Shown here: positions 13,760 through 37,138 of the stretch, piece after piece
Layout of the letters: each line of letters starts with the position of its first letter
Numbering within the stretch: the stretch's first letter is position 1
Origin: Thermoproteota archaeon
GTDB lineage: Archaea > Korarchaeota > Korarchaeia > Korarchaeales > Korarchaeaceae
Assembly (NCBI GenBank): GCA_027491415.1
Contig: JAOZFH010000020.1
Location: forward strand, 1 to 40,147
DNA: 40,147 bases
Direction of reading: 5' to 3'
Notes under the pieces: model-generated
The model's database searches: none
Told to the model about the DNA's origin: nothing
Seen by the model: only the letters and a program-made list of their open reading frames with translations
Position numbers and translations under genes: made by a program

Positions 13760-13850
13760 AATATAACTATTGCAAGTAATTTTACCGTTAGAAATAAAAG
13801 GCAGTTATAGAACTATTTTTACGAAAACTACGTAGTTTTAGGTTTTCGTT
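13760..13850 (-). promoter_or_regulatory. AT-rich promoter of the reductase operon with nested palindromes
   Basis: This is the most AT-rich stretch of the left half. It includes a 16-bp perfect palindrome, AAAACTACGTAGTTTT, at 13824-13839. Around it lies a second inverted repeat, ACGAAAAC at 13821-13828 and GTTTTCGT at 13842-13849. TATA-like candidates between 13760 and 13815 lie downstream of the palindromes for leftward transcription, so the palindromes are placed like an upstream activator or repressor site. Confidence 0.6.
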
Positions 13851-23643: not shown

Positions 23644-24453
23644 TCACCCCTCCGCCGGCAGCGGCGGCGCGGATTTCGGGGCGGGCGCCCCCTCCCCGGC
23701 GGACCTCCTCGCCATCTCGATGAGCCTGGCCACCCTCTCCTCCACGCCGGGGTGCCAGGAGAACGCCCTCCTCAAGGATCCAAGCCTGCCCCTCCTGTCA
23801 GACGCGGCCAGGAGGAGGCTCTTCACCGTCCACCTTACCGCCCTGGGCGACTCCGGCAGCCCTCCCCTGTAGGCCATGGCCACCTTGACGAGGGCGCTCG
23901 CCAGGTCCAAGGGCCTCCCCGAGGCCATCGCCCCCTCCTCGTCCGCCCTGAACTCCAGCCACCTGCAGACCGCGGCCCCCAGGAGGGTCCCGAGGGGTAT
24001 GTTCAGCACGCCCTCAACGGCCGCGAACACCCTGAGGAGGGGGTGCCTTCCAGCCACGTGGGCCACCTCGTGGGCCAGAACGGCACGGATCTCGTCGGGC
24101 GTGAGGAGCCTCAGCATCCCCCCAGTCACCAGGACTAGGTACTTGCCCGGGCCCAGGAAGAGCGTCAGTGAGTTCGGCTCGTCATCCCTCAGGACGCCCA
24201 GCTCCACCTCCTGGCCCGCCCCTAGCGCCGACCTCAGGGACTCCAGCTCCCTGGAGAGGCCCTCGGGCGGGGGGTCCACGAAGTCCCTCAGCTGCCCCGA
24301 GGCCAGCCTCCCGCTCAGCACGCTCCAGGCCGCCCCAGCCGCGGCGAGCGACCCCAGGAACGCGGCTGCCCAGGCGTTCCTGAAGTATAGGGCGAGGCCG
24401 ATGGTGGCGGCCAGCGGCGAGAGGGCCGCGAGCGCCCCGAGGGCGCGGGTCAC
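23644..24453 (-). CDS. M48-type membrane metallopeptidase partner of the BlaI repressor
   Basis: 269 residues. Two membrane helices open the protein (about 5-50), then a cytosolic or surface peptidase domain with zinc motif HEVAH at 128-132 and the third ligand in EFRADEEGA (Glu167, Asp171). A possible third helix covers 150-163. The order matches HtpX-like M48 peptidases. The start overlaps the BlaI stop by 4 nt (GTGA), so the two are co-translated. BlaI repressors are classically paired with a membrane metallopeptidase of family M56 (BlaR1/MecR1). Here an M48-like enzyme takes that place, so it may cleave the repressor when an inducer or membrane stress is sensed (inference). Confidence 0.85.
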   Translation of the reverse strand: MTRALGALAALSPLAATIGLALYFRNAWAAAFLGSLAAAGAAWSVLSGRLASGQLRDFVDPPPEGLSRELESLRSALGAGQEVELGVLRDDEPNSLTLFLGPGKYLVLVTGGMLRLLTPDEIRAVLAHEVAHVAGRHPLLRVFAAVEGVLNIPLGTLLGAAVCRWLEFRADEEGAMASGRPLDLASALVKVAMAYRGGLPESPRAVRWTVKSLLLAASDRRGRLGSLRRAFSWHPGVEERVARLIEMARRSAGEGAPAPKSAPPLPAEG

Positions 24454-24860
24454 CCTCGACTGCCCTCCCCCACGGAGGACCTCTCCGCCTCTATCCTCCT
24501 GAGGATCTCTCTGAGCTCCTCTGGGCTGAGGTGAACGGCTCCCTCCTCTATTAGCTTGACCAGACCGGGCCTTCCGAGCGTGTTCACCACTCTCTTGATC
24601 GCGTCCCGGGCCACGCTCCTCTCGTACTCCTCCCTGCTGACCCTGGGCCTGTAGACGTAGTACACCCCTCCCCTGCCGGTCCTGAACTCCCGCTCCACGA
24701 GTCCCTTCCCGTGAAGTCTGGAGAGCACGGTGCCGACGGTCGTGAGCGAGAGAGGCCTCTCCCGGCTCAGCTCCTCGAAGACCTCCCTGACGGTCGCCGA
24801 CCCCCTCTTGAACAGGACGTCCATGACCCTGGGCTCGAGCGGCTCCCTCCTCCTCGGCAA
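24450..24860 (-). CDS. BlaI/MecI-family winged-helix repressor
   Basis: 136 residues. The DNA-binding half is LEPRVMDVLFKRGSATVREV, with SLTTVGTVLSRLHGKGLVER and GGVYYVYRP, the canonical BlaI helix-turn-helix and wing. The C-terminal half (SREEYERSVARDAIKRVVN and LSPEELREILRRI) is the dimerisation part. TTG start with GGGGGTAGG upstream. The family binds palindromes of the TACA-n-TGTA type. Such palindromes lie in its own promoter and before the peptide genes at 28.7 kb, which supports it as regulator of the whole 24-35 kb locus. Confidence 0.92.
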   Translation of the reverse strand: MPRRREPLEPRVMDVLFKRGSATVREVFEELSRERPLSLTTVGTVLSRLHGKGLVEREFRTGRGGVYYVYRPRVSREEYERSVARDAIKRVVNTLGRPGLVKLIEEGAVHLSPEELREILRRIEAERSSVGEGSRG

Positions 24861-24871
24861 CCTACCCCCAT

Positions 24872-24924
24872 CTACGACATGATGTAAGGACGTTTAAATA
24901 TTTCCCCGCTTCTACATTGTGTAG
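24872..24924. promoter_or_regulatory. Divergent promoter with two BlaI-type operators
   Basis: A shared AT core GTTTAAATATTT at 24892-24903 serves both directions. CTACGACATGATGTAA (24872-24887) covers the repressor transcription start. CTACATTGTGTAG (24912-24924), a perfect 5-bp inverted repeat with 3-nt spacer, covers the rightward start. Both have TAC/GTA half sites as used by BlaI/MecI proteins. Confidence 0.65.
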
Positions 24925-24946
24925 TTTATTCCGCGGGGTGGTGGTG

Positions 24947-25141
24947 GTGAGCTTAGCCGAGGTGGTCAGGCTCCTGCTCCCCGTGATAGCCCTCCAAGTC
25001 GCGCTTCAAGTCTACAGCCTCTATCTGATCGTCAGGCGGTCCGAGTGGGGTCTCGGGACGAAGGTGAAGTGGTCCGTGGTCGTCATCGCCTTGGGGGTCC
25101 TCGGTGTCTTGGCGTTCCTGTTCCTGGGGAGGAGGCGGTGA
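24947..25141 (+). CDS. Small two-helix membrane protein, PLDc_N-like
   Basis: 64 residues from GTG 24947, chosen because GGGGTGG lies about 5 nt upstream and the frame before it runs through the operator. Two membrane helices (about 6-26 and 38-58) are separated by IVRRSEWGLGTKVKWS, and it ends LGRRR. This resembles the short PLDc_N family that often stands beside bacteriocin-type ABC exporters; some such short proteins are thought to give immunity. First gene of the rightward operon, 1 nt before the ATPase. Confidence 0.7.
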   Translation: MSLAEVVRLLLPVIALQVALQVYSLYLIVRRSEWGLGTKVKWSVVVIALGVLGVLAFLFLGRRR

Positions 25142-26113
25142 ATGGACGGGGGCGTCCTGGTGGAGGGTCTCGTTAAGGTCTACGGGGAGATAGAGGCCGT
25201 GAGGGACGTCTCCTTCGACGTCGAACCGGGGGAGGTGATGGGGCTACTCGGCCCCAACGGGGCCGGCAAGACCACCACCATGAGGGTACTCGCCTCCGTC
25301 ATCAGGCCAACGGCCGGCAGGGCCATAGTGAACGGGGCGGACGTTGTCAGGGAGAGGGACAGGGTCAGGAGGTCGGTGGGCTATCTCCCCGAGAGGTCGG
25401 GCCTGCCCGCGAGGATGACCGGCGAGAGGTACCTGACGATGTTCGCGAGGCTGCACGGCCTGGCGGACCCGGAGGGCAGGGCCAGGGAGGTGGCCAGGGA
25501 GCTCGGCATCTCCGACAGGTTGGGCTCCAAGTTGGGATCCCTCTCGAAGGGTCTAAAGAGGAGGGTGGCCATAGCCAGGGCCCTCGTCCACGACCCGCCC
25601 GTCCTGCTCCTGGACGAGCCCACGTCCGGCCTGGACCCAATCAGCAGGGCCCAGGTGCTGGACCTCATAGCCCGGCAGGCTGCGGAGGGGAAGGCGGTCC
25701 TGGTCTCATCCCACGTCCTGTCGGAGATGGAGAGGATCTGCACGAGGGTATGCCTCATCTCCCGGGGCAGGGTGCTCGCGCGGGGACCCCTCGACGAGGT
25801 TAGGTCCTCGGCCGGGAGGCCGGTGCTCAGGCTCAGGGCGCGGATGGCGGGAGACCTAGTTCCGCTCCTGGAGGCCGCCCTGCGGGAAGCCAGGCTCGCG
25901 GTCAGGCTAAGGGACCTGAACGGGGTCGTCGAGGTGGATCCGATAGGGGGGCCCGGCGACCTGCGGTCGGCGGCCGCGGTCGTCCTGAGGCGCCTCTTGG
26001 ATGAGGGGGTGGTGCCGGACCTGTTCGAGATCCACAGGCCGACGCTGGAGGAGGCGTTCGTGGCGCTCGTGGGGGGAGCGGCCCGTGCGGGGGATCTGGG
26101 CGCTGCTGGGTGA
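25142..26113 (+). CDS. ABC transporter ATPase 1
   Basis: 323 residues. Walker A is GPNGAGKTTTM, the signature is LSKGLKRR, Walker B is PVLLLDEPTSGLDP and the switch is SSHVL. The C-terminal ~100 residues form the extra domain of ABC-2/CcmA-type exporter ATPases. It should drive the permease encoded by the next, overlapping gene. A 73-nt stretch around Walker B (25566-25638) is base-identical to the second ATPase. Exported substrate inferred to be the modified peptides. Confidence 0.95.
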   Translation: MDGGVLVEGLVKVYGEIEAVRDVSFDVEPGEVMGLLGPNGAGKTTTMRVLASVIRPTAGRAIVNGADVVRERDRVRRSVGYLPERSGLPARMTGERYLTMFARLHGLADPEGRAREVARELGISDRLGSKLGSLSKGLKRRVAIARALVHDPPVLLLDEPTSGLDPISRAQVLDLIARQAAEGKAVLVSSHVLSEMERICTRVCLISRGRVLARGPLDEVRSSAGRPVLRLRARMAGDLVPLLEAALREARLAVRLRDLNGVVEVDPIGGPGDLRSAAAVVLRRLLDEGVVPDLFEIHRPTLEEAFVALVGGAARAGDLGAAG

Positions 26114-26837
26114 GGAGCTGAGGCTCTCGGCACAGAGGGCCGTCTGGACCGCCGCGGCCCTCTCCTTCTTCGGGATGGCCGGGGTTGCCGCACTGAAGAT
26201 GCTGCCCGAGCTGCTACCGGAGGGGGCCGTCCTTCCCGTTGAGATGACGGCCTCCGAGGCCGTCAGGGGCTACGTGAGGACCCTCTACCAGATAGGGTCC
26301 CTGGTGTCGGTCATGCTCGGGATGGACGTAGTCTCGGGGGAGGTGGAGGGTGGGACCCTTGAGCCGCTCCTCTCCGCGCCCGTGTCGGTGGGGTCCGTCT
26401 TCCTCGCCAAGCTGGCGGCCAGGCTGGCCGCCCTGGCCGCCGGGGTCGCGGCCTCCGCCGCGGTCACGTGGTGCTACGCCGTCAGCGTCTTCGGCCCCAC
26501 GGACCTGGCGAGGACCCTGGCGGCGTCGGCCTACGCCCTCCTACCCATCTCCTCGGGGGCGCTCTGCGCGGCGGGCGCCAGCGCCCTCTGTCGATCCCAG
26601 TCCTCCAGCGCCCTCCTCGGCGCAGCCGCCACCCTGGGGCTATTCGCCGCCTCCAGGGTCGGCCCCCGCTGGTTGACCCCCTTCGGTCGGGCGGAGCTGG
26701 CCTACGAGATCCTGGACGGCGGGCTGGGCGGCCTGGCCCGGCCAATCGTCGAGACCTCGCTCGCCCTGCTGATCCTCCTCGCCGCCGACCTGGCGGCGCT
26801 CCTGGCGGCCGAGAGGATGGAGAGGTGGTGGGGATGA
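26085..26837 (+). CDS. ABC-2 type permease 1
   Basis: 250 residues from GTG 26085, which has GGGGGGAG just upstream and overlaps the ATPase gene by 29 nt. About six membrane helices. The block MDVVSGEVEGGTLEPLLSAPVSV is the ABC-2 permease landmark (related to GERExGTLEpLLaaPvs). It should pair with ATPase 1 to export a peptide or lipid-like substrate. Confidence 0.9.
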   Translation: MRGIWALLGEELRLSAQRAVWTAAALSFFGMAGVAALKMLPELLPEGAVLPVEMTASEAVRGYVRTLYQIGSLVSVMLGMDVVSGEVEGGTLEPLLSAPVSVGSVFLAKLAARLAALAAGVAASAAVTWCYAVSVFGPTDLARTLAASAYALLPISSGALCAAGASALCRSQSSSALLGAAATLGLFAASRVGPRWLTPFGRAELAYEILDGGLGGLARPIVETSLALLILLAADLAALLAAERMERWWG

Positions 26838-27850
26838 TTGAGGTTAGCGGGCTCGTCAAGAGGTACGGCTCCGTCACGGCCATCGAGGGCGTGACCTTCT
26901 CGGTGGGGTCGGGGGAGGTGTTCGGCCTCCTCGGCCCCAACGGGGCCGGCAAGACCACCACCATGAGGATAATCTGCTGCGTGATACCCCCTGACGCGGG
27001 GTCCGTCGTCGTGGCGGGAGTAGACGCCCTTAGGGACCCGTCGAGGGCCAAGCAGTCCATCGGATACCTGCCCGAGGTCCCGTCGGTCTACAGCCGGCTT
27101 ACCGTCAGGGAGAACCTCGAGTTCTTCGCCAGGCTGTACGGGGTACCCGGCGGAGAGGCTGAGCCGAGGGTCTCTCGGCTCCTGAGGTTCTTCTCGCTGG
27201 AGGAAAGGGCGGATCAGCTGGCCTCGAGGCTGTCCAAGGGGCTGAGGCAGAGGCTGGCCATAGCCAGGGCCCTCGTCCACGACCCGCCCGTCCTGCTCCT
27301 GGACGAGCCCACGTCCGGCCTGGACCCGATAAGCGCCAGGGAGGTCAGGGACCTGGTGGTGAGGGTGGCCAGGGAGGAGGGGAAGACCGTCCTCCTCTCC
27401 ACTCACAACCTATTCGAGGCGGAGCAGGTCTGCGACAGGGTCGCGATAATAAGGAGGACGATCCTCGCCGTGGGGAGGCCGAGGGAACTCGCCGAGAGGG
27501 CCTCGATTAGGGTCCCGGTGAGGGTGGCCCTGGCCAACCCCTCGGAGGGGCTGGTGAGGGTGGCCCTCTCGGTCCAGGGGGTGACCTCCGCCAAGCTGGA
27601 GTCCGGAGAGCTCGTCGCGGAGCTTGAGGGGGATCCGGACTCGGTGGTGCCCGAGCTCAGCGCGGCCCTGGTCGCGGCGGGAGCCAAGATACTGTCGATC
27701 CGCCGAACCTCGTCGCTGGAGGAGGCGTTCATCTCGGTCGTCCGGGGCGGGCCGCGGGTGAGGTCCCGATCCGTCGGTGGTGGGGGGCGGGGCCCAGACG
27801 TGAACACGGGGACGGCCGAGATGTCTGGGGAGGGGGTGGTGCGGGCGTGA
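26834..27850 (+). CDS. ABC transporter ATPase 2
   Basis: 338 residues from ATG 26834, overlapping permease 1 by 4 nt. Walker A GPNGAGKTTTM, signature LSKGLRQR, Walker B PVLLLDEPTSGLDP and STHNLFEAEQV are intact. A C-terminal tail of about 30 Gly/Arg-rich residues is extra. It is paralogous to ATPase 1, and two blocks are identical at the DNA level, so the pair arose by tandem duplication with later homogenisation or strong constraint. Confidence 0.95.
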   Translation: MIEVSGLVKRYGSVTAIEGVTFSVGSGEVFGLLGPNGAGKTTTMRIICCVIPPDAGSVVVAGVDALRDPSRAKQSIGYLPEVPSVYSRLTVRENLEFFARLYGVPGGEAEPRVSRLLRFFSLEERADQLASRLSKGLRQRLAIARALVHDPPVLLLDEPTSGLDPISAREVRDLVVRVAREEGKTVLLSTHNLFEAEQVCDRVAIIRRTILAVGRPRELAERASIRVPVRVALANPSEGLVRVALSVQGVTSAKLESGELVAELEGDPDSVVPELSAALVAAGAKILSIRRTSSLEEAFISVVRGGPRVRSRSVGGGGRGPDVNTGTAEMSGEGVVRA

Positions 27851-28665
27851 TCAGGTGGTCGAGGGTTCTGTGCGTCCTGACGAAGGACTGGAGGGAGTTC
27901 TCTAGGAGCGGTTGGCTGGTCGGGACCGCCCTGGCGCTGACGGTCTACTTCGGCGTCGTCCTGCCGGCCATAATCGTGTTCGGGGCCAGGATCTCTGGCG
28001 GCGCCGTCGTCCCCATATCGATACCCGTCAGGCTCGGGGACCTGCCCCTTCCCGCGGCTCCCGAGGGGCTGGACGAGGTGGCTAGGTCTGTCTACGCGGC
28101 CTTCTCTCTGATCGTCCCCCCGCTCTTCCTGGTGATCCCCCTGGCGGTGTCGACCGTGATGGCGGCGGACAGCTTCGCCGGCGAGAGGGAGAGGGGGACT
28201 ATAGAGGTCCTCTTGGCCGCCCCGCTCACCGAGAGGGAGCTCTTCCTGGCCAAGGCCCTCGCGTCCCTGACGCCGGGTGTGGCGGCCTCCTGGGGGGCCT
28301 TCGCGCTGATGGCCCTGGCGACCAACCTGATGTCGGCTGACATGTTCGGCGGGTGGTGGTTCCCGTCCGGCCCCGAGTGGTACGTGGTCGTCGCCCTCGT
28401 GTCCCCGCTCTACGCCTTCCTCGCAATATCCCTCATAGTGCTGGCCTCCTCCAGGGCTAGGAGCGCCAGGGAGGCTCAGCAGGCGTCCGCAATACTGGTG
28501 GCGCCCATCCTGGCGGCGGTGTTCGGCCAGGTCCTCGGGGGCTTCGCGATCGGCTTGGAGCACCTCTTGATCTCAGCAGCGGTCCTGGCGGGTCTGGACG
28601 CCGGGCTCGTCGCCCTCGCGCCGGGCAGGTTCTTCTCTGGGGTGAGGTACATGAGGGTCGATTAG
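27847..28665 (+). CDS. ABC-2 type permease 2
   Basis: 272 residues, GTG start overlapping ATPase 2 by 4 nt. About six helices. The landmark DSFAGERERGTIEVLLAAPL is a perfect ABC-2 permease signature before helix 3. The first extracellular loop (about residues 45-85) is longer than in permease 1. It completes the second exporter; its end is 10 nt before the operator region of the peptide genes. Confidence 0.93.
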   Translation: MIRWSRVLCVLTKDWREFSRSGWLVGTALALTVYFGVVLPAIIVFGARISGGAVVPISIPVRLGDLPLPAAPEGLDEVARSVYAAFSLIVPPLFLVIPLAVSTVMAADSFAGERERGTIEVLLAAPLTERELFLAKALASLTPGVAASWGAFALMALATNLMSADMFGGWWFPSGPEWYVVVALVSPLYAFLAISLIVLASSRARSAREAQQASAILVAPILAAVFGQVLGGFAIGLEHLLISAAVLAGLDAGLVALAPGRFFSGVRYMRVD

Positions 28666-28674
28666 CTTGTCCAC

Positions 28675-28721
28675 TTGTAGTAGCTACTACAAATTGTAAT
28701 AATGCTTATATTATGTCGTAG
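28675..28721 (+). promoter_or_regulatory. Promoter and BlaI-type operators of the precursor-peptide genes
   Basis: TTGTAGTAGCTACTACAA at 28675-28692 is a perfect 18-bp palindrome. It overlaps TACAA-A-TTGTA at 28688-28698. A TATA-like TTATATTA at 28706-28713 follows, then ATGTCGTAG at 28713-28721, the exact complement of CTACGACAT in the repressor promoter (24872-24880). Transcription should start near 28735, just before the first peptide gene. Confidence 0.7.
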
Positions 28722-28743
28722 GTTGACCTCCCCAGGTGGGAGC

Positions 28744-28875
28744 GTGGAGGTGTCCGGGTACACTCCCCCCGCCATGCTGAACCTGACCGGGACCGGGGAT
28801 CAGGGGGTCGCCGCGGCCGTGGTCGTCGTCATAGGAATCCTCCTCATCTGGCTGGCCATCGACCTGACCCCGTGA
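28744..28875 (+). CDS. Putative RiPP precursor peptide 1 (43 aa)
   Basis: Reads VEVSGYTPPAMLNLTGTGDQ, then GVAAAVVVVIGILLIW and LAIDLTP. The leader carries Y-x-P-P-A-M and ends with DQG; the rest is hydrophobic with one Trp 30 residues after the Tyr. Start GTG 28744 follows AGGTGGG; GTG 28750 or TTG 28723 are possible. The first of five related ORFs in a row on the same strand, just downstream of the operator. Without a modifying context it would look like a single-helix membrane peptide; the following maturation genes argue for a precursor. Confidence 0.7.
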   Translation: MEVSGYTPPAMLNLTGTGDQGVAAAVVVVIGILLIWLAIDLTP

Positions 28876-28895
28876 GCCAAGCGAGGTGAGGGGAC

Positions 28896-29018
28896 TTGAG
28901 GACCTACACTCCACCAGCGCTGCTGAGCCTCTCTGGAGCGGTGGATCAGGGCGCGGTGGCGGCTGCCGTGGCCGTCATAGCGGCGGTGGCCCTGTGGCTC
29001 TGGCTCTGGGTCTACTGA
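28896..29018 (+). CDS. Putative RiPP precursor peptide 2 (40 aa)
   Basis: Reads MRTYTPPALLSLSGAVDQGA, then VAAAVAVIAAVALW and LWLWVY. TTG start with GAGGTGAG about 6 nt upstream. The leader Y-x-P-P-A-L followed by DQG aligns without gaps with peptide 1, and the Trp 30 residues after Tyr is conserved. The C-terminus alternates Trp (W-L-W-L-W-V-Y), the clearest candidate for side-chain crosslinking. Confidence 0.75.
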   Translation: MRTYTPPALLSLSGAVDQGAVAAAVAVIAAVALWLWLWVY

Positions 29019-29044
29019 TGACGCGTACACCGGGGTGAAGTCCA

Positions 29045-29173
29045 GTGAGGGCCTACTCGCCTCCGACGATGCTGAACATAACGACCTCCGCGAACGTGGG
29101 CCTCGTGACGCCCACCGTGGCGGTGATCATCCAGGCGCTGGTGTGGGTCTACGTCTGGGTCTGGGCGACCTGA
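29045..29173 (+). CDS. Putative RiPP precursor peptide 3 (42 aa)
   Basis: Reads MRAYSPPTMLNITTSANVGL, then VTPTVAVIIQALVW and VYVWVWAT. GTG start, with GGGGTGAAG upstream. It has the same Y-x-P-P-T-M leader, NVG in place of DQG, and Trp exactly 30 residues after Tyr, with alternating W/Y/W/W at the end. It does not overlap its neighbours; each peptide has its own ribosome site. Confidence 0.75.
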   Translation: MRAYSPPTMLNITTSANVGLVTPTVAVIIQALVWVYVWVWAT

Positions 29174-29188
29174 GGGAGGCTCAAACGC

Positions 29189-29332
29189 ATGGAGCGCCGC
29201 GCATACGCACCTCCCGCCATGCTCAACGCGATGTCCGACGGACGGGACCTTGGAGCAGTCATTCTCATGCCCATCCTCATAGCGATAGTGATCATCTGGG
29301 TGCTCGGGCAGGACTGGGGGGAGACCTCCTGA
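29189..29332 (+). CDS. Putative RiPP precursor peptide 4 (47 aa)
   Basis: Reads MERRAYAPPAMLNAMSDGRD, then LGAVILMPILIAIVIIW and VLGQDWGETS. ATG start, with GAGGGAGG about 12 nt upstream. Leader Y-x-P-P-A-M and DLG are conserved; the Trp falls 31 residues after Tyr. Its end differs from the others (polar, second Trp six residues later), so the family varies mainly at the C-terminus, as expected of a core peptide. Confidence 0.75.
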   Translation: MERRAYAPPAMLNAMSDGRDLGAVILMPILIAIVIIWVLGQDWGETS

Positions 29333-29355
29333 GCCCTGCCTGGGAGGTGAGGTGG

Positions 29356-29485
29356 GTGGAGAGGAAGTACGTCCCTCCGGCCCTCATGTCCATTAATGGA
29401 GGAGAAGGCGAAGACGGTCGTGATAGTGGCCCTGCTGGTCTGGCTCTGGGTCAAGGTCTTCGACCCCAAGGCGGCGGGAGTCTGA
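29356..29485 (+). pseudogene. Putative RiPP precursor peptide 5, frameshifted
   Basis: GTG 29356, after GAGGTGAGG, reads VERKYVPPALMSIN with the same leader motif. The frame then leaves the expected hydrophobic part. One base later, from ATG 29396, the other frame reads MEEKAKTVVIVALLVWLWVK and ends VFDPKAAGV at 29483-29485. Removing one A from ATTAATGG would join them. Either a real frameshift, a consensus error, or two very short ORFs. The [DN]-x-G turn is missing, and the spacing from Tyr to the first Trp is about six residues shorter than in the other peptides. Confidence 0.6.
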
Positions 29486-29504
29486 TCCCTCGGGGGGCCC
29501 GGCC

Positions 29505-30934
29505 TTGGCCCTGGAGCCACGGACTCCAGTGCGGCTTAGAAACCCCAAGAGGCTTCGCAAAGAGGCTTTCGGCGGCCTCTACATGGACCTCCCCCACTCT
29601 CTTTTTTTGATATTTAACGAGACGGGTTATCTGATCCTGAGGGAGGTCTCGGGGGGCTCCACTCCCGAGCAGGTCGCGGCCGCCCTGGCCGCCAGGTTCC
29701 CCCAGGAGGACCCGGACCTCATAATGGGGTCGGTAATCCGGTTCCTCGAGCAGGCCGCTGCGGCCGGCCTGGTGACGTTGGGGGACTCCCCCGAGACTCT
29801 TGGCGGCGCCGGACCCGCACCCGGCTCGATCGAACCAGCGCAGGCAGAAGGGGGCAGAGAGGGCCCCTCAGAGTACGCCAAGTCGATCCTCGATTCGCCC
29901 TACGTGCTGGGCGTCGAGCCGAACGTGCTGTCGGCCCCTCTCAAGGTCCTGATAGAGGTGACGAGGAGGTGCAACCTCAGGTGCCTCCACTGCTACGCGC
30001 GGAGCGGAGACACGGGCTCCGAGGAGATGGAGACCGAGGAGATGAAGTCCCTGCTCGAGGATCTGGTGGACTCGGGGGTCAACTACTTCGTCATATCCGG
30101 TGGGGAGCCTCTTGTCAGGAAGGACCTGTTTGAGCTCCTGGAGCACGTGGCGAGGCTCGGGGCTGAGGCGTCCCTGCTGACCAACGCCACCCTCATCGAC
30201 AGGGAGAGGGCGGCCCGGCTCAGGGACCTCGGGGTGCTGAAGGTGGAGGCCAACCTGGACTCCGCCAGGCCGGAGGTCTACGACAGGTTCCGGGGCGTTC
30301 CAGGCGCCTTCGAGATGACCGTCAGGGGAGTGAGGGCGCTGGTGGAGGAGGGCGTTCCCACGAGGCTGAACGTGACGGTGACGCGCATGAACGTGGGAGA
30401 GCTGGAGGACATCGTGGAGGCTGCCGTGGAACTCGGGGTGAGGGAGGTCGCCTTCGTCGAGCTAAAGCCCTCGGGCAGGGGGCTGGACAACTACTCGAAG
30501 CTCGCCCTCGGCCCGGAAGAGAGGGCGGAGGTGGGCAGGAGGCTGAGGGAACTCTCCAAGAGGTCAGGGGGAGGGCCCTGATCCTTGGCGGGAGCAGGGA
30601 GGACCTGGACATGGTCGACCCACACGGCGTCCTCCCGCTGTGCGGGGCCGGCAAGCTCCACTGCTCCATCACGCCGTGGGGCGACGTCAAGCCATGCGCC
30701 TTCCTCCCAGACGACCCCGCCTGCATCGCCGGCAGCGTCAGGGAGAGGAGCCTGCTGGAGATCTGGCAGAACTCCCCCCTGTTCAGCGCCTTCAGGAGGC
30801 TCGGGAATCCGATCTGCGAGGCCTGCGGCGACGCCAGGTGCGCGGGCGGGTGCAGGGTCCGGGTCTACGCCGCCACGGGATCGCTGGGTGGGGCCCCCGA
30901 CCCGAAGTGCTCCAGACTTGCCCCGGCGGGGTGA
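29505..30934 (+). pseudogene. RRE (PqqD-like) - radical SAM - SPASM peptide maturase, one-base frameshift
   Basis: The first frame (29505-30581) has a PqqD-like RRE domain at about residues 10-92. The radical SAM motif CNLRCLHC follows (Cys156, Cys160, Cys163), then ISGGEPLVRKD. It stops at 30579-30581. The second frame carries ALILGGSREDLDMVDPHG, then the SPASM cysteines (LHCSITPWGDVKPC and ICEACGDARCAGGC plus PKC). A run of five G at 30567-30571 with one G added would join SGGRALILGG exactly. Joined, the protein is about 476 residues. The family installs crosslinks or other carbon-centred changes on precursor peptides bound by the RRE. The start may instead be GTG 29529. Function depends on whether the frameshift is real, programmed or an error. 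Confidence 0.85.
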
Positions 30935-30941
30935 TGTGGAG

Positions 30942-31478
30942 ATGGAGGTAGAGGGGCTGTCCTACCCGCCTTCCGGCGAGGTGAGGGTTAGGAGGCTCTC
31001 GGAGGAGGACGACCTAACCCCTGCCTTCAGGCTGATGATGTCCCTCGACTACGGGGTCCCGGAAGAGGCGGTGACCGCGCTCTTCCCGTCGCCCAGCGCG
31101 GTTCAGGCCAGGGTGAAGATGGGCCTGGTCTCGGTGTACGTGGCCGAGGCGGACGGCGACGGGGAGCCCGTTGGCGTGGCGGTCGTCATCTCGACCCCCC
31201 AGTCGTACAACAGAGACCAGAGGGTCGTGGCCCTCGTAGGCGTCAGGCCCGGTCACAGGAGGAGGGGGGTAGGGACCACCCTCCTGAGGGCCGTGATCGA
31301 AGACTCGAGGAGGGAGGGGGTGAAGAAGCTGGTGGCGCAGGTCCCGGTTCAGAACAAGGCCTCAGCCGCCCTGTTCCTGAAGAACGACTTCAGGTTCGAG
31401 TCCTACCTGAGGGACGCCTACGGCATGGGCAGGGACTCCTACGTCATGGCCCTGAGGCTGGGAGGTGACGGCGCTTGA
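30942..31478 (+). CDS. GNAT N-acetyltransferase
   Basis: 178 residues from ATG 30942 (GTG 30936 also possible). The acetyl-CoA site reads VVALVGVRPGHRRRGVGTTL (Q/RxxGxG/A type loop), followed by the helix LLRAVIEDSRREGVKK and the strand VAQVPVQNKASAALFLKNDF, a standard GNAT motif B. Placed between the two radical SAM genes and overlapping the second by 4 nt, it belongs to the locus. A role in acetylating the finished peptide (self-protection or N-capping) is an inference. Confidence 0.88.
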   Translation: MEVEGLSYPPSGEVRVRRLSEEDDLTPAFRLMMSLDYGVPEEAVTALFPSPSAVQARVKMGLVSVYVAEADGDGEPVGVAVVISTPQSYNRDQRVVALVGVRPGHRRRGVGTTLLRAVIEDSRREGVKKLVAQVPVQNKASAALFLKNDFRFESYLRDAYGMGRDSYVMALRLGGDGA

Positions 31479-32560
31479 CGGCGGAGCCCCAGTTCACCCT
31501 CGACCTCTACTCCCCGGACTTCAGCTTCTTCAAGGCGGTCCCGAGGGGGGAGGCCGAGGCCCTCTTGAGGGAGTGGAGGGGCCTGCAGGTCCTCCCGAGG
31601 CGCCTCAGGTCTCCTCTATTTGTGCTCTGGGAGACGACCTACCGCTGCAATCTGAACTGCTCTTTCTGCTACAACAGGTCCCCCCGAAGGGTGAGTGAGC
31701 TCACCTCCAGGGAGGCCATGTCCCTCATTTCCGAGCTGGCGGACACGCTCAGGCCGTTCAGCGTCTGCGTGAGTGGGGGGGAGCCCACGCTCCGCCCCGA
31801 CTACCTGAAGATCCTCGCGTCCCTCCACGCCGCCGGGATCACCGTGGCCACCATAACCAACGGCTGGACCATGAGCGAGGAGCTCGCCTCCGGGATAGCG
31901 AGCCACGCACACACGGCCCAGGTGAGCCTGGACGGCCCCAGGCCCGAGGTCCACGACGCGATCAGGGGGAGGAGGGGGGCGTTCGAGAGGGCCTTGAACG
32001 CCCTCAGGCTCCTGAGGGGGGCTGGAATAGCCGAGCTCTCCCTCTCCTTCGTGGCGACGAGGGAGAACATACGAGACTTCCCGGACATGGTGGACCTGGC
32101 CAGGAGGTACGAGGTCGACCGGCTCAGGGTCCAGCCGGTGGTCCCCACGGGGCGGGGCGACCTGGAGTCGGTACCCACCCCCGAGCAGCTGAGGTGGCTC
32201 GAGGGGTTCCTCGAGCGCGAGGTCGAGGGGGCGGCCGAGGAGGGGCTGAGGATAGAGTACGGCGACCCCGCCCACCACATAAGGGCCGGCCTGCTGATCG
32301 GCCTCACCCTCGCCATGAACATCACGGCGGACGGGCACGTGGGATTCACCCCATACTTCCCGTTCTCGTGCGGGAACGTCAGGAGGCATCCAATCCACTG
32401 GATATGGACCGAGAGGGTCTCGAAGGCCTGGAGGCACCCGGTGGTGAGGTCCGAGCTCTCAAAGGTGAGGACGGTCTACGACTTCTACAAGGTCTCGGGG
32501 GCGAGCAGCAGGGAGCCCGTCCCCCTCGACGGCTGGGATGAGGTGGGCCTGGGGGAGTGA
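31475..32560 (+). CDS. Radical SAM peptide-maturase-like protein without SPASM cysteines
   Basis: 361 residues, TTG start overlapping the GNAT gene. The motif CNLNCSFC (Cys58, Cys62, Cys65) and SGGEPTLRPDY (101-111) are intact, with ITNGWTMSEEL and VSLDGPRPEVHDAIRG typical of the MoaA/PqqE-like branch. The C-terminal region, where a SPASM domain would be, holds a single Cys (FSCGNVRRHP), so no auxiliary clusters are expected. It has no fused RRE; the stand-alone RRE encoded next could serve it. A second, different modification of the peptide is the likeliest role. Confidence 0.88.
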   Translation: MTAEPQFTLDLYSPDFSFFKAVPRGEAEALLREWRGLQVLPRRLRSPLFVLWETTYRCNLNCSFCYNRSPRRVSELTSREAMSLISELADTLRPFSVCVSGGEPTLRPDYLKILASLHAAGITVATITNGWTMSEELASGIASHAHTAQVSLDGPRPEVHDAIRGRRGAFERALNALRLLRGAGIAELSLSFVATRENIRDFPDMVDLARRYEVDRLRVQPVVPTGRGDLESVPTPEQLRWLEGFLEREVEGAAEEGLRIEYGDPAHHIRAGLLIGLTLAMNITADGHVGFTPYFPFSCGNVRRHPIHWIWTERVSKAWRHPVVRSELSKVRTVYDFYKVSGASSREPVPLDGWDEVGLGE

Positions 32561-32573
32561 GGGGGTGTTGCCG

Positions 32574-32882
32574 GTGAGGAGCGTGGAGGTATCGGACGAC
32601 GCCGTGCCGGTCAGGGAGCCCGTGTCTTGGAGGTGGGACGGCGAGACTATGGAGCACATCGTCCTCTCCGTCCCCAAGACCAAGAACATCTACATACTCA
32701 ACCCGACGGCCGCCCTCGTGTTCTACCTATGCAACGGCCACAACACGGTATCTGATATAGCCGAGACCGTCGCGAAGAGGTTCGGGGCCGACTACCGGGT
32801 GGTCGTCAGACACGTCAGGGACTTCGTGGGGAGGCTGGTCGAGATGGGCGTGGTCTCACTCCATGGAGAGGGGGATGTGTGA
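32574..32882 (+). CDS. Stand-alone PqqD-like RRE protein
   Basis: About 102 residues. IYILNPTAALVFYLCNGHNT followed by VSDIAETVAKRFG and VRHVRDFVGRLVEMGVV is the PqqD winged-helix pattern. The family binds the leader of RiPP precursors and presents them to the modifying enzyme. GTG 32574 is chosen for its G-rich ribosome site about 7 nt upstream; GTG 32565 or ATG 32538 are alternatives. It overlaps the tldD-like gene by 4 nt (GTGA), so it is co-translated with the protease. Confidence 0.85.
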   Translation: MRSVEVSDDAVPVREPVSWRWDGETMEHIVLSVPKTKNIYILNPTAALVFYLCNGHNTVSDIAETVAKRFGADYRVVVRHVRDFVGRLVEMGVVSLHGEGDV

Positions 32883-34267
32883 GCAAACCCGTTGCCGCCC
32901 GCTCCTGCCGGGGGTCACCCATGGCGGGCGCCTCCCTCGCAGCCTTGGGCGAGGCCGCAGACCTCGTCTCCAGGGCCATCAGAGAGTCCGACTTTGCCGA
33001 GCTGGTGTCGGTCAGGGAGGAGACCCTCAGGATCTCTTCTGCCCCCGACGGATCCATTTTGGAGGATCTCTCGGTGAGGGAGCGCATCCTCGTGAAGGCG
33101 CGGGTGCGCGGCTCCTGGCTCTCGGCCACGCTCCCAGCCTCCACCCTCCCCGGGCTCCTAGAGTCTCTGAGTGAGGCGACGCCCTCCGCAGAGGCTGAGA
33201 GACTCATACTCCCTCGAATGGGTCGGGGTGTCGAGTTCGGCAACTTCTCACCGGAGGAGGATGCGGGCTACCTCTGGGAGGTCGTGACGGCTCTGGCAGG
33301 CGGGCCGGACAGCCTATCGGCCTCGTGCACGCTGAGGTCCATATCCGTCAGGAACTCCCTGGGGGTGGGGGCGGAGACCTCGGAGATCGAGACAGCGGTG
33401 GTGGCCTTCTGGCACTCCAGTGAGAACTGGTTCAGGCCGGCCGACGAGGAGGTTCTGGGCGGCTGGGCCAGGCCGAGGGACCTGGTCCGGAGCCTCGTCG
33501 AGGGTGCCGAGTCGGTCAGGTCTGCGCGGGAGGAGGGTCGAGGGGGCCTCAGGATCGTGGATCCCCCGAGGGGCGCCCCCATCGCGCTGGCCCCGAGGGC
33601 GGCCGGCACCCTCGTGCACGAACTCCTCCAACACGGGCTCGAGGGAGACGCGGTCGCGGGGGGGAGGTCTTACCTGTCGGGCATGCTGGGGGGGAGGGTG
33701 GCCCCCGAGCTGCTCACCGTGCGCTCCGGGCCCCCCCACCCGGGCTGGAGGGTCGATCACGAGGGCGTGGCCGTCGAAGAGGCGAAGCTCGTCTCCGAGG
33801 GGGTGGTCACCTCCTACCTGACCGACGTGGAGTCGGCGATCCGCCTAGGCCTGCCCCCCATCGGGTGCGGGAGGTCGGCGGGCGACGACCCACCGTCCCC
33901 GAGGGCCACGGCCCTCTCGGTGGAGCCGGTAGACGGAGGGCCGGACCTGGATGAGATGGCCTCCGAGTTCGAGACGCTCCTGCTGGTCGACAGGGCCTCA
34001 GGGGGCTCCACAGATCCTTCGAGCGGCGAGTTCAGGATCTCAGCCCCGTCTGCCCTTGTGCTCAGACGGGGTTATCCCACGGGTGTGACCCCCGCCATCT
34101 GGCTGGAGGGGAGCTGCGCCTCGGTCCTCAGGGGGCTCTTGGGCCTGGGCGGCCGCTCTGAGGAGTTCGTTACCCTATGCGCCAAGGGAGGAGGGACCGT
34201 GCTCACCAGGATCTCCAGCCCGCCCGCCGCGATCTCTGGGGAGGTGGTGCGGGTCGTCCTCGCCTGA
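32879..34267 (+). CDS. TldD-like metalloprotease subunit
   Basis: 462 residues. The zinc motif HELLQHGLEGD matches the TldD signature HExxxHxxxxD (His247, Glu248, His252, Asp257). The third ligand region is VTLCAKGG (Cys434). TldD is the catalytic half of the TldD/TldE protease, known to trim linear leader fragments in microcin B17 maturation. It lies next to a TldE-like gene, so a dimer is expected that removes leaders from the modified peptides (inference). GTG start. The N-terminal 20 residues before the first helix are atypical. Confidence 0.92.
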   Translation: MSKPVAARSCRGSPMAGASLAALGEAADLVSRAIRESDFAELVSVREETLRISSAPDGSILEDLSVRERILVKARVRGSWLSATLPASTLPGLLESLSEATPSAEAERLILPRMGRGVEFGNFSPEEDAGYLWEVVTALAGGPDSLSASCTLRSISVRNSLGVGAETSEIETAVVAFWHSSENWFRPADEEVLGGWARPRDLVRSLVEGAESVRSAREEGRGGLRIVDPPRGAPIALAPRAAGTLVHELLQHGLEGDAVAGGRSYLSGMLGGRVAPELLTVRSGPPHPGWRVDHEGVAVEEAKLVSEGVVTSYLTDVESAIRLGLPPIGCGRSAGDDPPSPRATALSVEPVDGGPDLDEMASEFETLLLVDRASGGSTDPSSGEFRISAPSALVLRRGYPTGVTPAIWLEGSCASVLRGLLGLGGRSEEFVTLCAKGGGTVLTRISSPPAAISGEVVRVVLA

Positions 34268-34310
34268 CTCGGCCCTCAATAAGGGAGAGCGAGAGCACCC
34301 CGGAGACCTT

Positions 34311-35606
34311 CTGGACGGGCTCACTGGGCTGGTCGAGAGGGCCGTCGAGATCGCCCTAGGGTCGGGCGCCGAGGCCGCCGAGTGCTTCGCTGAGAGGAGG
34401 CTGGAGTCCCTGTACAGGCCGGGCCGCCCGCCGAGGCTGAGGGTCAGAGAGGGCCTCTCCCTCAGGGTGATCTTCGGGGGGAGGGTGCACTTCGCCTCCG
34501 CCTCCCTGGGGGGCTCCGACTCGGACAGCCTGACCCGGGTCCGCCGGGCCCTGGAGTACGCGGCCTCAGCGGGGACGAGGGGAGGGCGAGAGTGGCCCAG
34601 GGAGTTCTCCCCGATGTCCGGGAGCCTCCCGAGCGTGAGGACCGCGGACCCAGCCATACTGGACGCCTCGGCGGGCGAGGGGGGCACCGCCCTGGACGAG
34701 CTGGCTTCCAGACTTGGCGGCGGGGGCGAGGGGCCGACCCTGCTGGCCTCCTCCCGCGAGGTGGCCCTGGCCACGGACGCCGGGCCGATCCTGGCGGAGG
34801 TGAGGACCAGGTCCCTGGCACTGATCCACCTGGAGTCCCGGGGGCGGGCGGCCACCCTGGTCAGGGACGGGTGGAGCCTCTCAAATCTGTTGAAGGGGAT
34901 CGACGACCTGTCTCGGGAGCTCGAGGAGGTCGGAAGGGCGGAGTGGAGGCCGGCGGCCGTCTGGAGGTCGAGCCCCCGTCGGATCGTCCTCACCCCCTAC
35001 GCCCTGACCGGCCTGAGGGACCTCCTCTACCCAGTGCTCGACCCCGACCTGTCCCCGAGGTTAGACGTGCCCATCTGCGAAGTGAGGCTCGCCGAGGGGC
35101 TCTCCTTGGTCGACGACCCTGCATATCCGGGTGGCGTCCGGAGGGCGTTCGACGACGAGGGCACGCCCTCGACCCCCGTGAAGGTCCTCGACCACCGCGG
35201 CGCGAGGCAGCTCCTCACGCTGGCCAAGGCCCAGGCGAGGTCTGCCCGACCCACGGGGAGCTCAGTCAGACCGACCTACTCATCGAGGCCCTTGGCATTC
35301 CCATCCAACCTGGTCCTCACGTCGTCGGGCCGAGAGGACCCCGTGGAGCCTGAGACCGGCGCCCCGAGGCTCAGGGTCTTGGAGGGGGCCGCGGTCGGCG
35401 GGGTGGAGGCCGGGAGGCTGGAGGTGGGCGTGACGCTGGCCGTCCTCGAGGGGGAGCAGGAGACGCTGGTCGGGGGGTTCAAGCTCGTCTCGAGCTTCAG
35501 AGAGTTCTTCTCAGAGGTTCGTCCGGTGGGGCGGGAAGTGGTGGGCTGCTACGGCTTCTACTCCCCAGAGCTCGCGGTCCCGGCGCGGGCGGTCAGGCTG
35601 GAGTGA
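34311..35606 (+). CDS. TldE/PmbA-like protease subunit, 5' end unclear
   Basis: The frame reads GLVERAVEIALGSGAEAAEC and continues FAERRLESLYRPGRPPRLRV into LRVIFGGRVHFASASLGG, which aligns with the N-terminal domain of PmbA/TldE. That domain starts well before the only standard start in frame, GTG 34467. Upstream of it no ATG, GTG or TTG exists in frame; CTG codons at 34311 and 34329 are the candidates, or an indel hides the real start. The given start is therefore provisional. No HExxxH motif, as expected of the non-catalytic TldE partner. C-terminal blocks EGAAVGGVEAGRLEVGVTLA and GGFKLVSSFREFFSEVRPVG fit the family. Confidence 0.82.
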   Translation: MDGLTGLVERAVEIALGSGAEAAECFAERRLESLYRPGRPPRLRVREGLSLRVIFGGRVHFASASLGGSDSDSLTRVRRALEYAASAGTRGGREWPREFSPMSGSLPSVRTADPAILDASAGEGGTALDELASRLGGGGEGPTLLASSREVALATDAGPILAEVRTRSLALIHLESRGRAATLVRDGWSLSNLLKGIDDLSRELEEVGRAEWRPAAVWRSSPRRIVLTPYALTGLRDLLYPVLDPDLSPRLDVPICEVRLAEGLSLVDDPAYPGGVRRAFDDEGTPSTPVKVLDHRGARQLLTLAKAQARSARPTGSSVRPTYSSRPLAFPSNLVLTSSGREDPVEPETGAPRLRVLEGAAVGGVEAGRLEVGVTLAVLEGEQETLVGGFKLVSSFREFFSEVRPVGREVVGCYGFYSPELAVPARAVRLE

Positions 35607-36411: not shown

Positions 36412-37138
36412 GTTTCAACCCTGCCGCAAGACAAGAAAAGAAAGGGCCAATCTAATTCTTTAAAGGAATTTCCGGCCTCGTCGTTGCAAGAGGAACCTTC
36501 AACCCCGCCGCATTAGGCGGCAAATCTGCTTCTGGCCGCGGCCTGGGCCGGGTACAGGCCGAGGTCGAGCTTTCAACCCTGCCGCAAGAAGCGGCCAATC
36601 TGCTTCCCCGCTCGTCGCTCAGGAGTCTGGCGGGTTCCAGCGGGCTCTTTCAACCCTGCCGCAAGAAGCGGCCAATCTGCTTCGTGTGGGCAATAACGGG
36701 CTTCCTGTTCGGGCACGAGGTCGCTTTCAACCCTGCCGCAAGAAGCGGCCAATCTGCTTCGTCCGTGGGAGGACACAAAGAACACGGAGGGTTGAAAACT
36801 TTCAACCCTGCCGCAAGAAGCGGCCAATCTGCTTCCTGTAGGGCACGGTAGTAGTAGCGTAAAGCCTCGTAGATCTTTCAACCCTGCCGCAAGAAGCGGC
36901 CAATCTGCTTCGCGCAAGACTGCACCACGGCAGCGGAAGCATCGTGCAGCACTTTCAACCCTGCCGCAAGAAGCGGCCAATCTGCTTCGTACGCTCAGGC
37001 GGCCCAGGAGTGGGAGAGATACTACCTTTCAACCCTGCCGCAAGAAGCGGCCAATCTGCTTCACGCGATCCACGTGAACCGCTTCAGCTCTTCCACATTC
37101 TCTTTCAACCCTGCCGCAAGAAGCGGCCAATCTGCTTC
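36412..37138 (-). CRISPR. CRISPR array: 8 perfect and 2 degenerate 37-nt repeats, read leftward
   Basis: Perfect repeats start at 36570, 36647, 36724, 36799, 36875, 36952, 37026 and 37102, each 37 nt. Spacers between them are 37-40 nt. On the transcribed (minus) strand the repeat begins GAAGCAGATTGGCCGCTTCT and ends TGCGGCAGGGTTGAAAG. It contains a 5-bp stem GCCGC/GCGGC with loop TTCTT and ends GTTGAAAG, the usual 8-nt crRNA handle. A variant repeat at 36496-36532 keeps the stem but has a changed loop. A further one at about 36412-36458 is split by a short insertion. Degenerate copies at the left end mark the old, leader-distal side, so the leader is on the right. The likely processing enzyme is Cas6 at 5.1-6.0 kb. 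Confidence 0.97.

What the first reader, a model, noticed from the sequence alone, without database searches (positions are those of the whole stretch)
24872..28721. Shared BlaI-type operators link the repressor promoter and the peptide promoter 3.8 kb apart
The 9-mer CTACGACAT (24872-24880) occurs as its complement at 28713-28721. Each promoter also has perfect TAC/GTA palindromes (24912-24924; 28675-28692; 28688-28698) placed over or beside the expected transcription start. This argues that one repressor controls itself, the exporters and the peptides.
Basis: partly seen in the sequence, partly recalled or inferred. Interest (0 to 1): 0.72.

Follow-up and report, generated by a model that had tools for sequence, protein, structure and literature searches.

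The report
Archaeal BlaI-type repressor's shared operators
In an archaeal genome, the same short DNA switch sites that in its relatives sit only at the promoters of a BlaI-like repressor and the exporter next to it also sit at the promoter of a cluster of small modified peptides (and at one secreted cysteine-rich protein elsewhere), so one repressor probably switches all of them together.

Summary
CTACGACAT is at 24872-24880 and, inverted, at 28713-28721. The match extends to 17 bp (15/17 identical), and that 17-mer, even with two further mismatches, occurs only at these two places in the 1.78-Mb genome; the bare 9-mer occurs 27 times. Four relatives that carry the same BlaI-M48/ABC divergon have near-perfect TACTACATNATGTAGTA operators at both its promoters, mostly as the only close genome-wide matches. 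A matrix trained on those sites alone ranks three window sites first, second and third of 40 kb: 24910-24926 (exporter promoter), 28685-28701 (peptide promoter) and 24873-24889 (repressor promoter). In the whole genome six sites have at most 3 mismatches: three are inside genes; three are promoters, namely these two and one before a secreted Cys-rich protein on contig C46. Corrections: the 9-mer is one half-site of a larger operator; the 18-bp palindrome is two back-to-back half-sites in a 19-bp-phased array; the exporter module persists without the peptides (the sister species lost the block 28662-34896). The adjacent M48 membrane protease is the likely BlaR1-like anti-repressor. No binding was tested.

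The parts
23644..24453 (-). M48-family membrane metalloprotease (HEVAH motif, N-terminal hydrophobic helices), directly downstream of and overlapping the repressor gene; proposed BlaR1-like anti-repressor
   Evidence: Pfam M48 1.1e-15; model resembles Ste24/ZMPSTE24, BepA and the BlaR1 protease domain; next to blaI in all relatives
24450..24860 (-). BlaI/MecI-family winged-helix repressor (Penicillinase_R), 136 aa, TTG start
   Evidence: PF03965 76.7 bits; best PDB matches 2g9w, B. licheniformis BlaI 1p6r and MecI 1okr/1sd6; only BlaI-family gene in the genome
24873..24889 (.).
   Evidence: rank 3 in window by relative-trained matrix; same position as TACTACATGACGTAGTA in relatives; identical in G001
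24893..24903 (.). TTTAAATATTT, shared near-palindromic archaeal TATA-like element of the divergent promoters
   Evidence: sequence; centre -21.5 from O2 and about -16.5 from O1
24910..24926 (.). Operator O2 (TTCTACATTGTGTAGTT) at the expected start of the exporter transcript
   Evidence: rank 1 in window, 3 mismatches to consensus, conserved in G001
24949..25141 (+). small membrane protein (weak PLDc_N-like match), first gene of the exporter operon
   Evidence: Pfam PLDc_N 22.9 bits, below cut-off
25142..26113 (+). ABC ATPase 1 (DrrA/ABC-2 exporter type)
26080..26837 (+). ABC-2 permease 1 (start approximate)
26834..27850 (+). ABC ATPase 2
27847..28665 (+). ABC-2 permease 2
28675..28692 (.). 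perfect 18-bp palindrome TTGTAGTAGCTACTACAA: an orphan right half-site (28675-28682) back to back with the left half of operator O3
28685..28701 (.). Operator O3 (TACTACAAATTGTAATA) in the peptide promoter
   Evidence: rank 2 in window by relative-trained matrix; 3 mismatches, one of 6 such sites in the genome
28704..28720 (.). Weaker operator O4 (GCTTATATTATGTCGTA), centre 19 bp after O3, overlapping TATA-like TTATATTA; contains most of the inverted CTACGACAT
   Evidence: rank 11 in window; 17-mer shared only with O1 in the genome; three right half-sites at 19-bp steps, shuffle frequency 5e-5, post hoc
28750..28875 (+). precursor-like peptide 1 (V-S-G-YTPPAMLN..., hydrophobic W-containing tail); a start at 28744 is also possible
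   Evidence: sequence; alignment A1
28896..29018 (+). precursor-like peptide 2 (YTPPALLS...)
29045..29173 (+). precursor-like peptide 3 (YSPPTMLN...)
29189..29332 (+). precursor-like peptide 4 (YAPPAMLN...)
29355..29485 (+). fifth peptide copy (YVPPALMSI...) with a one-base frameshift before its hydrophobic tail
   Evidence: sequence; tail found by the profile in another frame, E 0.055
29505..30934 (+). PqqD + radical SAM (29505-30581) and SPASM domain (30611-30934) in different frames: one maturase interrupted by a frameshift, or a sequencing error in a G-rich run
31475..32560 (+). second radical SAM enzyme
32538..32882 (+). PqqD-like peptide chaperone
   Evidence: PF05402 44.1 bits
32879..34267 (+). 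TldD-like metalloprotease subunit (HELLQH)
   Evidence: PF19289 119 bits
34467..35606 (+). TldE/PmbA-like subunit
   Evidence: PF19289 44.8 bits

Best explanation
The window carries an archaeal BlaI-type divergon. A BlaI-family dimer binds about 17-bp operators (TACTACATNATGTAGTA-like) lying between the TATA box and the transcription start of its own gene (O1) and of the ABC exporter operon (O2), and a tandem array (orphan half-site, O3, O4, 19-bp phase) over the BRE/TATA region of the peptide operon. Bound repressor blocks assembly of the archaeal TBP/TFB/RNA-polymerase complex, so repressor, exporters and peptides are off together. The membrane M48 protease co-transcribed with the repressor most likely plays the BlaR1 role: on a signal (unknown; plausibly membrane or peptide stress) it cleaves or otherwise inactivates BlaI and opens all promoters, including a third target, a secreted Cys-rich protein on contig C46. 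Shown here: operator sequences, positions, conservation in relatives, genome-wide rarity, gene order. Inferred: binding, repression, the protease step, the signal, and the peptides' chemistry.
For: Relatives G015/16/18/19 (repressor 57-60% identical) have two 0-2-mismatch operators each in the blaI/ABC intergenic region, at the same places relative to TATA and start codons; apart from two other 2-mismatch sites that lie in or overlap coding frames, these are the only matches with fewer than 3 mismatches in their genomes. A matrix from those eight sites puts O2, O3 and O1 at ranks 1-3 of the window. G000 has six sites with <=3 mismatches: three coding, three promoters (O2, O3 and C46:3451, the last at TATA spacing -20.5 versus -21.5 for O2). 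O1 and O2 are conserved in same-genus G001. The O1/O4 17-mer is unique to these two promoters genome-wide. BlaI assignment. The blaI-M48 pair is present in all five close relatives, and an M48-family protease is the next gene at all seven more distant archaeal BlaI loci checked. The M48 model matches Ste24, BepA and BlaR1. BlaR1 cleaves BlaI directly (PMC9834060); BlaI/MecI operators are TACA/TGTA palindromes (PMC7253601).
Against: O1, O3 and O4 are degenerate (4, 3 and 5 mismatches). The peptide operators cannot be footprinted across species, since no other genome found has the peptides. Control (reversed) patterns occur about as often genome-wide, so there is no global enrichment, only placement. 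O3's geometry (upstream of or on TATA) differs from that of the other operators. The M48 protein lacks any sensor domain, and no cleavage site in BlaI was tested. CopY work shows that motif matches alone can mislead (PMC7253601).
Confidence: 0.72

Rival explanations
1. BlaI regulates only its own gene and the exporters; the peptide-promoter sites are chance similarity in an AT-rich promoter or relics of a duplicated operator region that no longer bind.
For: O3/O4 are imperfect; an AT-rich promoter favours such motifs (shuffle P only 1.8e-3); five relatives have the module without peptides; the peptide cluster shows decay (frameshifts, loss in G001).
Against: O3 scores almost as well as the conserved O2 and better than O1; O4 shares a genome-unique 17-mer with O1; half-sites repeat at exact 19-bp steps (5e-5, post hoc); another promoter outside the window also carries the operator at the standard position.
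Confidence: 0.2
2. The shared motif is the site of another TACA/TGTA-recognising regulator (for example a CopY-like metal sensor or a PadR/TrmB-type protein), and blaI is a bystander.
For: The protein also scores with CopY/TcrY and TrmB models; a PadR protein exists in the genome.
Against: In all five relatives the operators flank the blaI gene itself, the classical autoregulation layout; no CXC metal motif in the repressor (sequence); only one BlaI-family gene in the genome.
Confidence: 0.07
3. The M48 protein is an ordinary HtpX-like quality-control protease or a peptide-maturation protease, and BlaI responds instead to a small ligand (a rival to the protease step only).
For: No sensor domain; the nearest curated models are HtpX and the nearest folds Ste24/BepA; a BlaI ligand, a peptidoglycan fragment, has been proposed in Bacillus licheniformis (PMC3305447).
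Against: It sits directly downstream of blaI in genomes without any peptide genes and in distant archaeal families, which points to a link with the repressor, not with the peptides.
Confidence: 0.35

Closest known systems
BlaR1-BlaI-BlaZ / MecR1-MecI-mecA divergons (Staphylococcus aureus, Bacillus licheniformis)
   Same: BlaI-family repressor next to a membrane gluzincin protease gene; divergent promoters with dyad operators of TACA/TGTA type; autoregulation with more than one operator (PMC3305447, PMC9834060, PMC7253601).
   Different: Archaeal promoters; M48 not M56 protease and no penicillin-sensor domain; operator core TACA-N3-TGTA instead of TACA-N2-TGTA; targets are ABC exporters and peptides, not beta-lactamase or PBP2a.
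Mycobacterium tuberculosis BlaI (PDB 2g9w; identity as Rv1846c from memory)
   Same: Best sequence match among solved structures.
   Different: Different regulon; only partial similarity (E 7e-7).
CopR/CopY copper repressors
   Same: Same superfamily; operator RNYKACANNTGTMRNY; controls an exporter (PMC7253601).
   Different: CopY has a C-terminal CXC metal site; the window protein has none; operator spacing differs by one base.
Radical-SAM/PqqD RiPP clusters with TldD/TldE proteases
   Same: Short precursor-like peptides with a conserved leader-like motif, radical SAM enzymes, PqqD-type chaperone, TldD/E pair, ABC exporters.
   Different: Peptide family (YxPPxML...W-rich tail) matches no Pfam or NCBIfam model and was found in no other genome searched.

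Membership tests
BlaI/MecI (Penicillinase_R) repressor family | winged-helix domain plus helical dimerisation tail over the full family profile | tested here: met
   PF03965 positions 4-114 of 115, 76.7 bits; aligns to 2g9w, MecI and BlaI
BlaI/MecI (Penicillinase_R) repressor family | dyad operators with TACA/TGTA core at its own promoter | tested here: met
   perfect or near-perfect in four relatives, degenerate in window; core spacing is 3 bp, not the classical 2
BlaI/MecI (Penicillinase_R) repressor family | specific binding to these operators | not testable with these tools
   needs EMSA or footprinting
BlaR1-BlaI signalling pair | membrane zinc protease encoded with the repressor | tested here: met
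   M48 with HExxH overlapping blaI; same in five close relatives and seven distant archaeal loci
BlaR1-BlaI signalling pair | protease of family M56 | tested here: not met
   Pfam assigns M48, no M56 match for the window protein; some distant relatives match both
BlaR1-BlaI signalling pair | extracellular beta-lactam sensor domain | tested here: not met
   269-aa protein with only the M48 domain
BlaR1-BlaI signalling pair | proteolytic cleavage of the repressor | not testable with these tools
   biochemistry needed
CopY copper repressor | C-terminal CXC metal-binding motif | tested here: not met
   no cysteine in the 136-aa sequence
RiPP biosynthetic cluster | precursor peptides plus modifying enzyme and leader protease | tested here: met
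   gene content; product unproven

The most novel reading that the evidence does not exclude
Archaea use a BlaI repressor paired with a sensor-less M48 membrane protease as a general proteolytic switch; in this species it co-ordinates two unrelated classes of secreted product (radical-SAM-modified peptides and a Cys-rich secreted protein) with a pair of ABC exporters, an archaeal counterpart of a bacteriocin regulon.
Probability: 0.35. Interest if true: 0.7.

Novelty: new variant of a known kind. Interest (0 to 1): 0.5.

Why it matters
BlaI-type control is known chiefly from bacterial antibiotic resistance and copper export. Here the same logic, repressor plus membrane protease plus divergent operators, appears with archaeal promoters, where the repressor would have to block TBP/TFB instead of a sigma factor, and its operators have been recruited by an orphan peptide cluster. 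It gives a concrete regulon of four promoters for which binding, repression and protease-dependent induction can be tested with a purified thermostable protein.

Tried and rejected
(1) Footprinting the peptide promoter: impossible, no second peptide cluster was found in 29 genomes of the phylum, in 392 genomes of another phylum (one weak hit, antisense to another gene, rejected), or via the radical SAM protein in 85,000 species (only distant bacterial radical SAM proteins). (2) A second BlaI in the genome (C40): rejected, it is PadR. (3) A strict window consensus TACANNNTGTA as evidence by itself: rejected, 11 genome sites and 14 for the reversed control. (4) Bacterial sigma-70 promoters: none; TATA elements fit archaeal promoters. 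(5) The 18-bp palindrome as an operator in its own right: rejected, its half-sites point outward; it is better read as two adjacent half-sites. (6) The Cys-rich paralogue on C36 as another target of the same operator: no matching operator; it has a different inverted repeat with TACAGGTGTA. (7) Halocin-C8-like identity of the Cys-rich protein: a lead from memory only; no Pfam, NCBIfam, PHROGs or PDB match. (9) BlaI loci in other archaeal families: no clear TACA/TGTA operators upstream, except a half-conserved GCTACTACAG near the start of the G002 gene.
Full report
WHAT IS THERE. Reading outward from the finding: on the minus strand a BlaI/MecI-family repressor (24860-24450, PF03965 76.7 bits; best solved relatives 2g9w, BlaI 1p6r and MecI 1okr/1sd6), overlapped by an M48 membrane metalloprotease (24453-23644). 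On the plus strand, divergently, a small membrane protein and two ABC ATPase/ABC-2 permease pairs (24949-28665). Then, behind a second promoter region, four intact precursor-like peptides and one broken one (28750-29485) that share Y-x-P-P-x-[ML]-L and a hydrophobic Trp-containing tail, a PqqD/radical SAM/SPASM enzyme split by a frameshift, a GNAT, a second radical SAM enzyme, a PqqD-like protein, and a TldD/TldE pair. The genome is read as archaeal from archaeal-type TATA elements and from neighbouring genes that look like an A-type ATPase subunit and a RIO kinase (own reading); the phylum was not named by any tool.

CHECK OF THE OBSERVATION. The 9-mer by itself is not rare (27 copies in the genome), but the match really spans 17 bp, and that 17-mer exists only at these two promoters even with two further mismatches allowed. 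The 13-bp and 11-bp elements have perfect 5-bp arms with spacers of 3 and 1; the 18-bp element is a perfect palindrome.

INDEPENDENT TEST. Orthologous divergons (M48-BlaI, then ABC) were found in the same-genus genome G001 (repressor 94% identical) and in G015, G016, G018 and G019 of the same family (57-60%). In the last four, both the blaI and the ABC promoter carry TACTACATNATGTAGTA with 0-2 mismatches, between the TATA box and the start codon. Across those genomes these are the only matches with fewer than 3 mismatches apart from two 2-mismatch sites (G015:C47, G019:C203) that lie in or overlap coding frames. A weight matrix made from these eight sites only, with no window sequence in the training set, was slid along the window. 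Its best three hits were 24910-24926 (15.5 bits), 28685-28701 (14.1) and 24873-24889 (8.6); the fourth, at 7.2, is elsewhere; 28704-28720, which holds most of the inverted CTACGACAT, came eleventh (3.6). Dinucleotide shuffles of each intergenic region reach the observed maximum in 0.02% (divergent) and 0.18% (peptide) of trials.

GENOME SCALE. With at most 3 mismatches to the relatives' consensus, the window's genome has six sites. Three are inside genes (C30, C51, C5). The other three are promoters: O2, O3, and a site on contig C46 (3451-3467, TACTACATCGTGTAGAT) that follows a TTTATATA box by nearly the same distance as O2 (-20.5 versus -21.5) and precedes a 300-aa secreted protein with 20 cysteines in its last 99 residues. 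The reversed control pattern has a similar count (7), so what is meaningful is not the number of sites but that half of them lie at promoters.

FINE STRUCTURE OF THE PEPTIDE PROMOTER. The sequence reads half-site TTGTAGTA (28675), full operator O3 TACTACAA-A-TTGTAATA (28685), and O4 GCTTATAT-T-ATGTCGTA (28704). The three right-hand half-sites are spaced exactly 19 bp (28675, 28694, 28713); shuffles give such a triple in 5 of 100,000 (1 of 20,000 trials; post hoc). The 18-bp palindrome is therefore the junction of two neighbouring half-sites. O3 and O4 cover either possible TATA element (AATTGTAATAAT or TTATATTA), so bound repressor would block TBP/TFB (inferred).

EVOLUTION. G001 aligns at 97% up to the last codons of the second permease (window 28661) and resumes at 34897 inside the TldE gene, with a further gap 35028-35275: the sister species lost the peptide block and its promoter and keeps only TldE remnants, while BlaI, M48, exporters, O1 and O2 are intact. 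So the exporter divergon is probably the older unit, and the peptide cluster an add-on that acquired operators. In the window the cluster itself shows two frameshifts, so either it is starting to decay or the assembly has errors.

MECHANISM. Shown: the operators, their placement, conservation and rarity, and the constant blaI-M48 pairing (five close relatives, and an M48-family protease next to BlaI at all seven further archaeal loci examined). Inferred: autorepression and co-repression of exporters and peptides, with the M48 protein acting like BlaR1. Its predicted fold (mean pLDDT 69, weak in the membrane helices) matches Ste24/ZMPSTE24, BepA and, with lower TM-score, BlaR1. BlaR1 is known to cleave BlaI directly (PMC9834060). 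A ligand-driven alternative exists in the literature for Bacillus licheniformis (PMC3305447). The protease role is put at about even odds (0.5), the shared regulation at about 0.75.

COMPARISON. It works like the bla/mec divergons and is a member of the BlaI family, but it is not a BlaR1-BlaI pair in the strict sense: the protease is M48, there is no sensor domain, and the operator core is one base wider (TACA-N3-TGTA). Literature searches for archaeal BlaI-M48 systems and for TldD/radical-SAM peptides in archaea returned nothing on point in the held library, which is no proof of absence.

Noticed in passing
G000 contig C46:3499-4401 (L077), paralogue G000:C36:5801-6667 (L081): Two 57%-identical secreted proteins with an N-terminal domain and a C-terminal domain of 18-20 cysteines, each followed by hydrophobic membrane-type ORFs, matching no known family; a distant homologue in G011 (L082). 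Layout recalls halocin C8 (from memory, untested).
   Followed up: partly
G000:C36 about 6700-6765 (L081): The C36 paralogue's promoter has a different 10-bp inverted repeat, ACACCTGTAA...TTACAGGTGT, flanking its TATA box, with TACAGGTGTA (2-bp spacer, CopY-like) at the start site; a possible second operator type.
   Followed up: partly
29355-29485 and 30560-30620: Fifth peptide copy and the PqqD/radical SAM/SPASM enzyme each carry a one-base frameshift: decay or assembly error.
   Followed up: no
28662-34896 versus L027 (G001): The whole peptide/maturase block is deleted in the sister species, leaving TldE remnants: a natural knock-out of the peptides with exporters and repressor intact.
   Followed up: yes
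36483-37138: CRISPR-like array (9 repeats at about 76-bp steps, CTTTCAACCCTGCCGCAAGAAGCGGCCAATCTGCTTC); the contig C46 end carries a near-identical repeat judging by its translation.
   Followed up: partly
13824-13839: AT-rich perfect palindrome AAAACTACGTAGTTTT in an AT-rich intergenic stretch of this GC-rich window; not a BlaI-operator match.
   Followed up: no
L070-L076: BlaI-family genes in other archaeal families are all directly followed by an M48-family membrane protease gene, though the downstream neighbours differ.
   Followed up: partly
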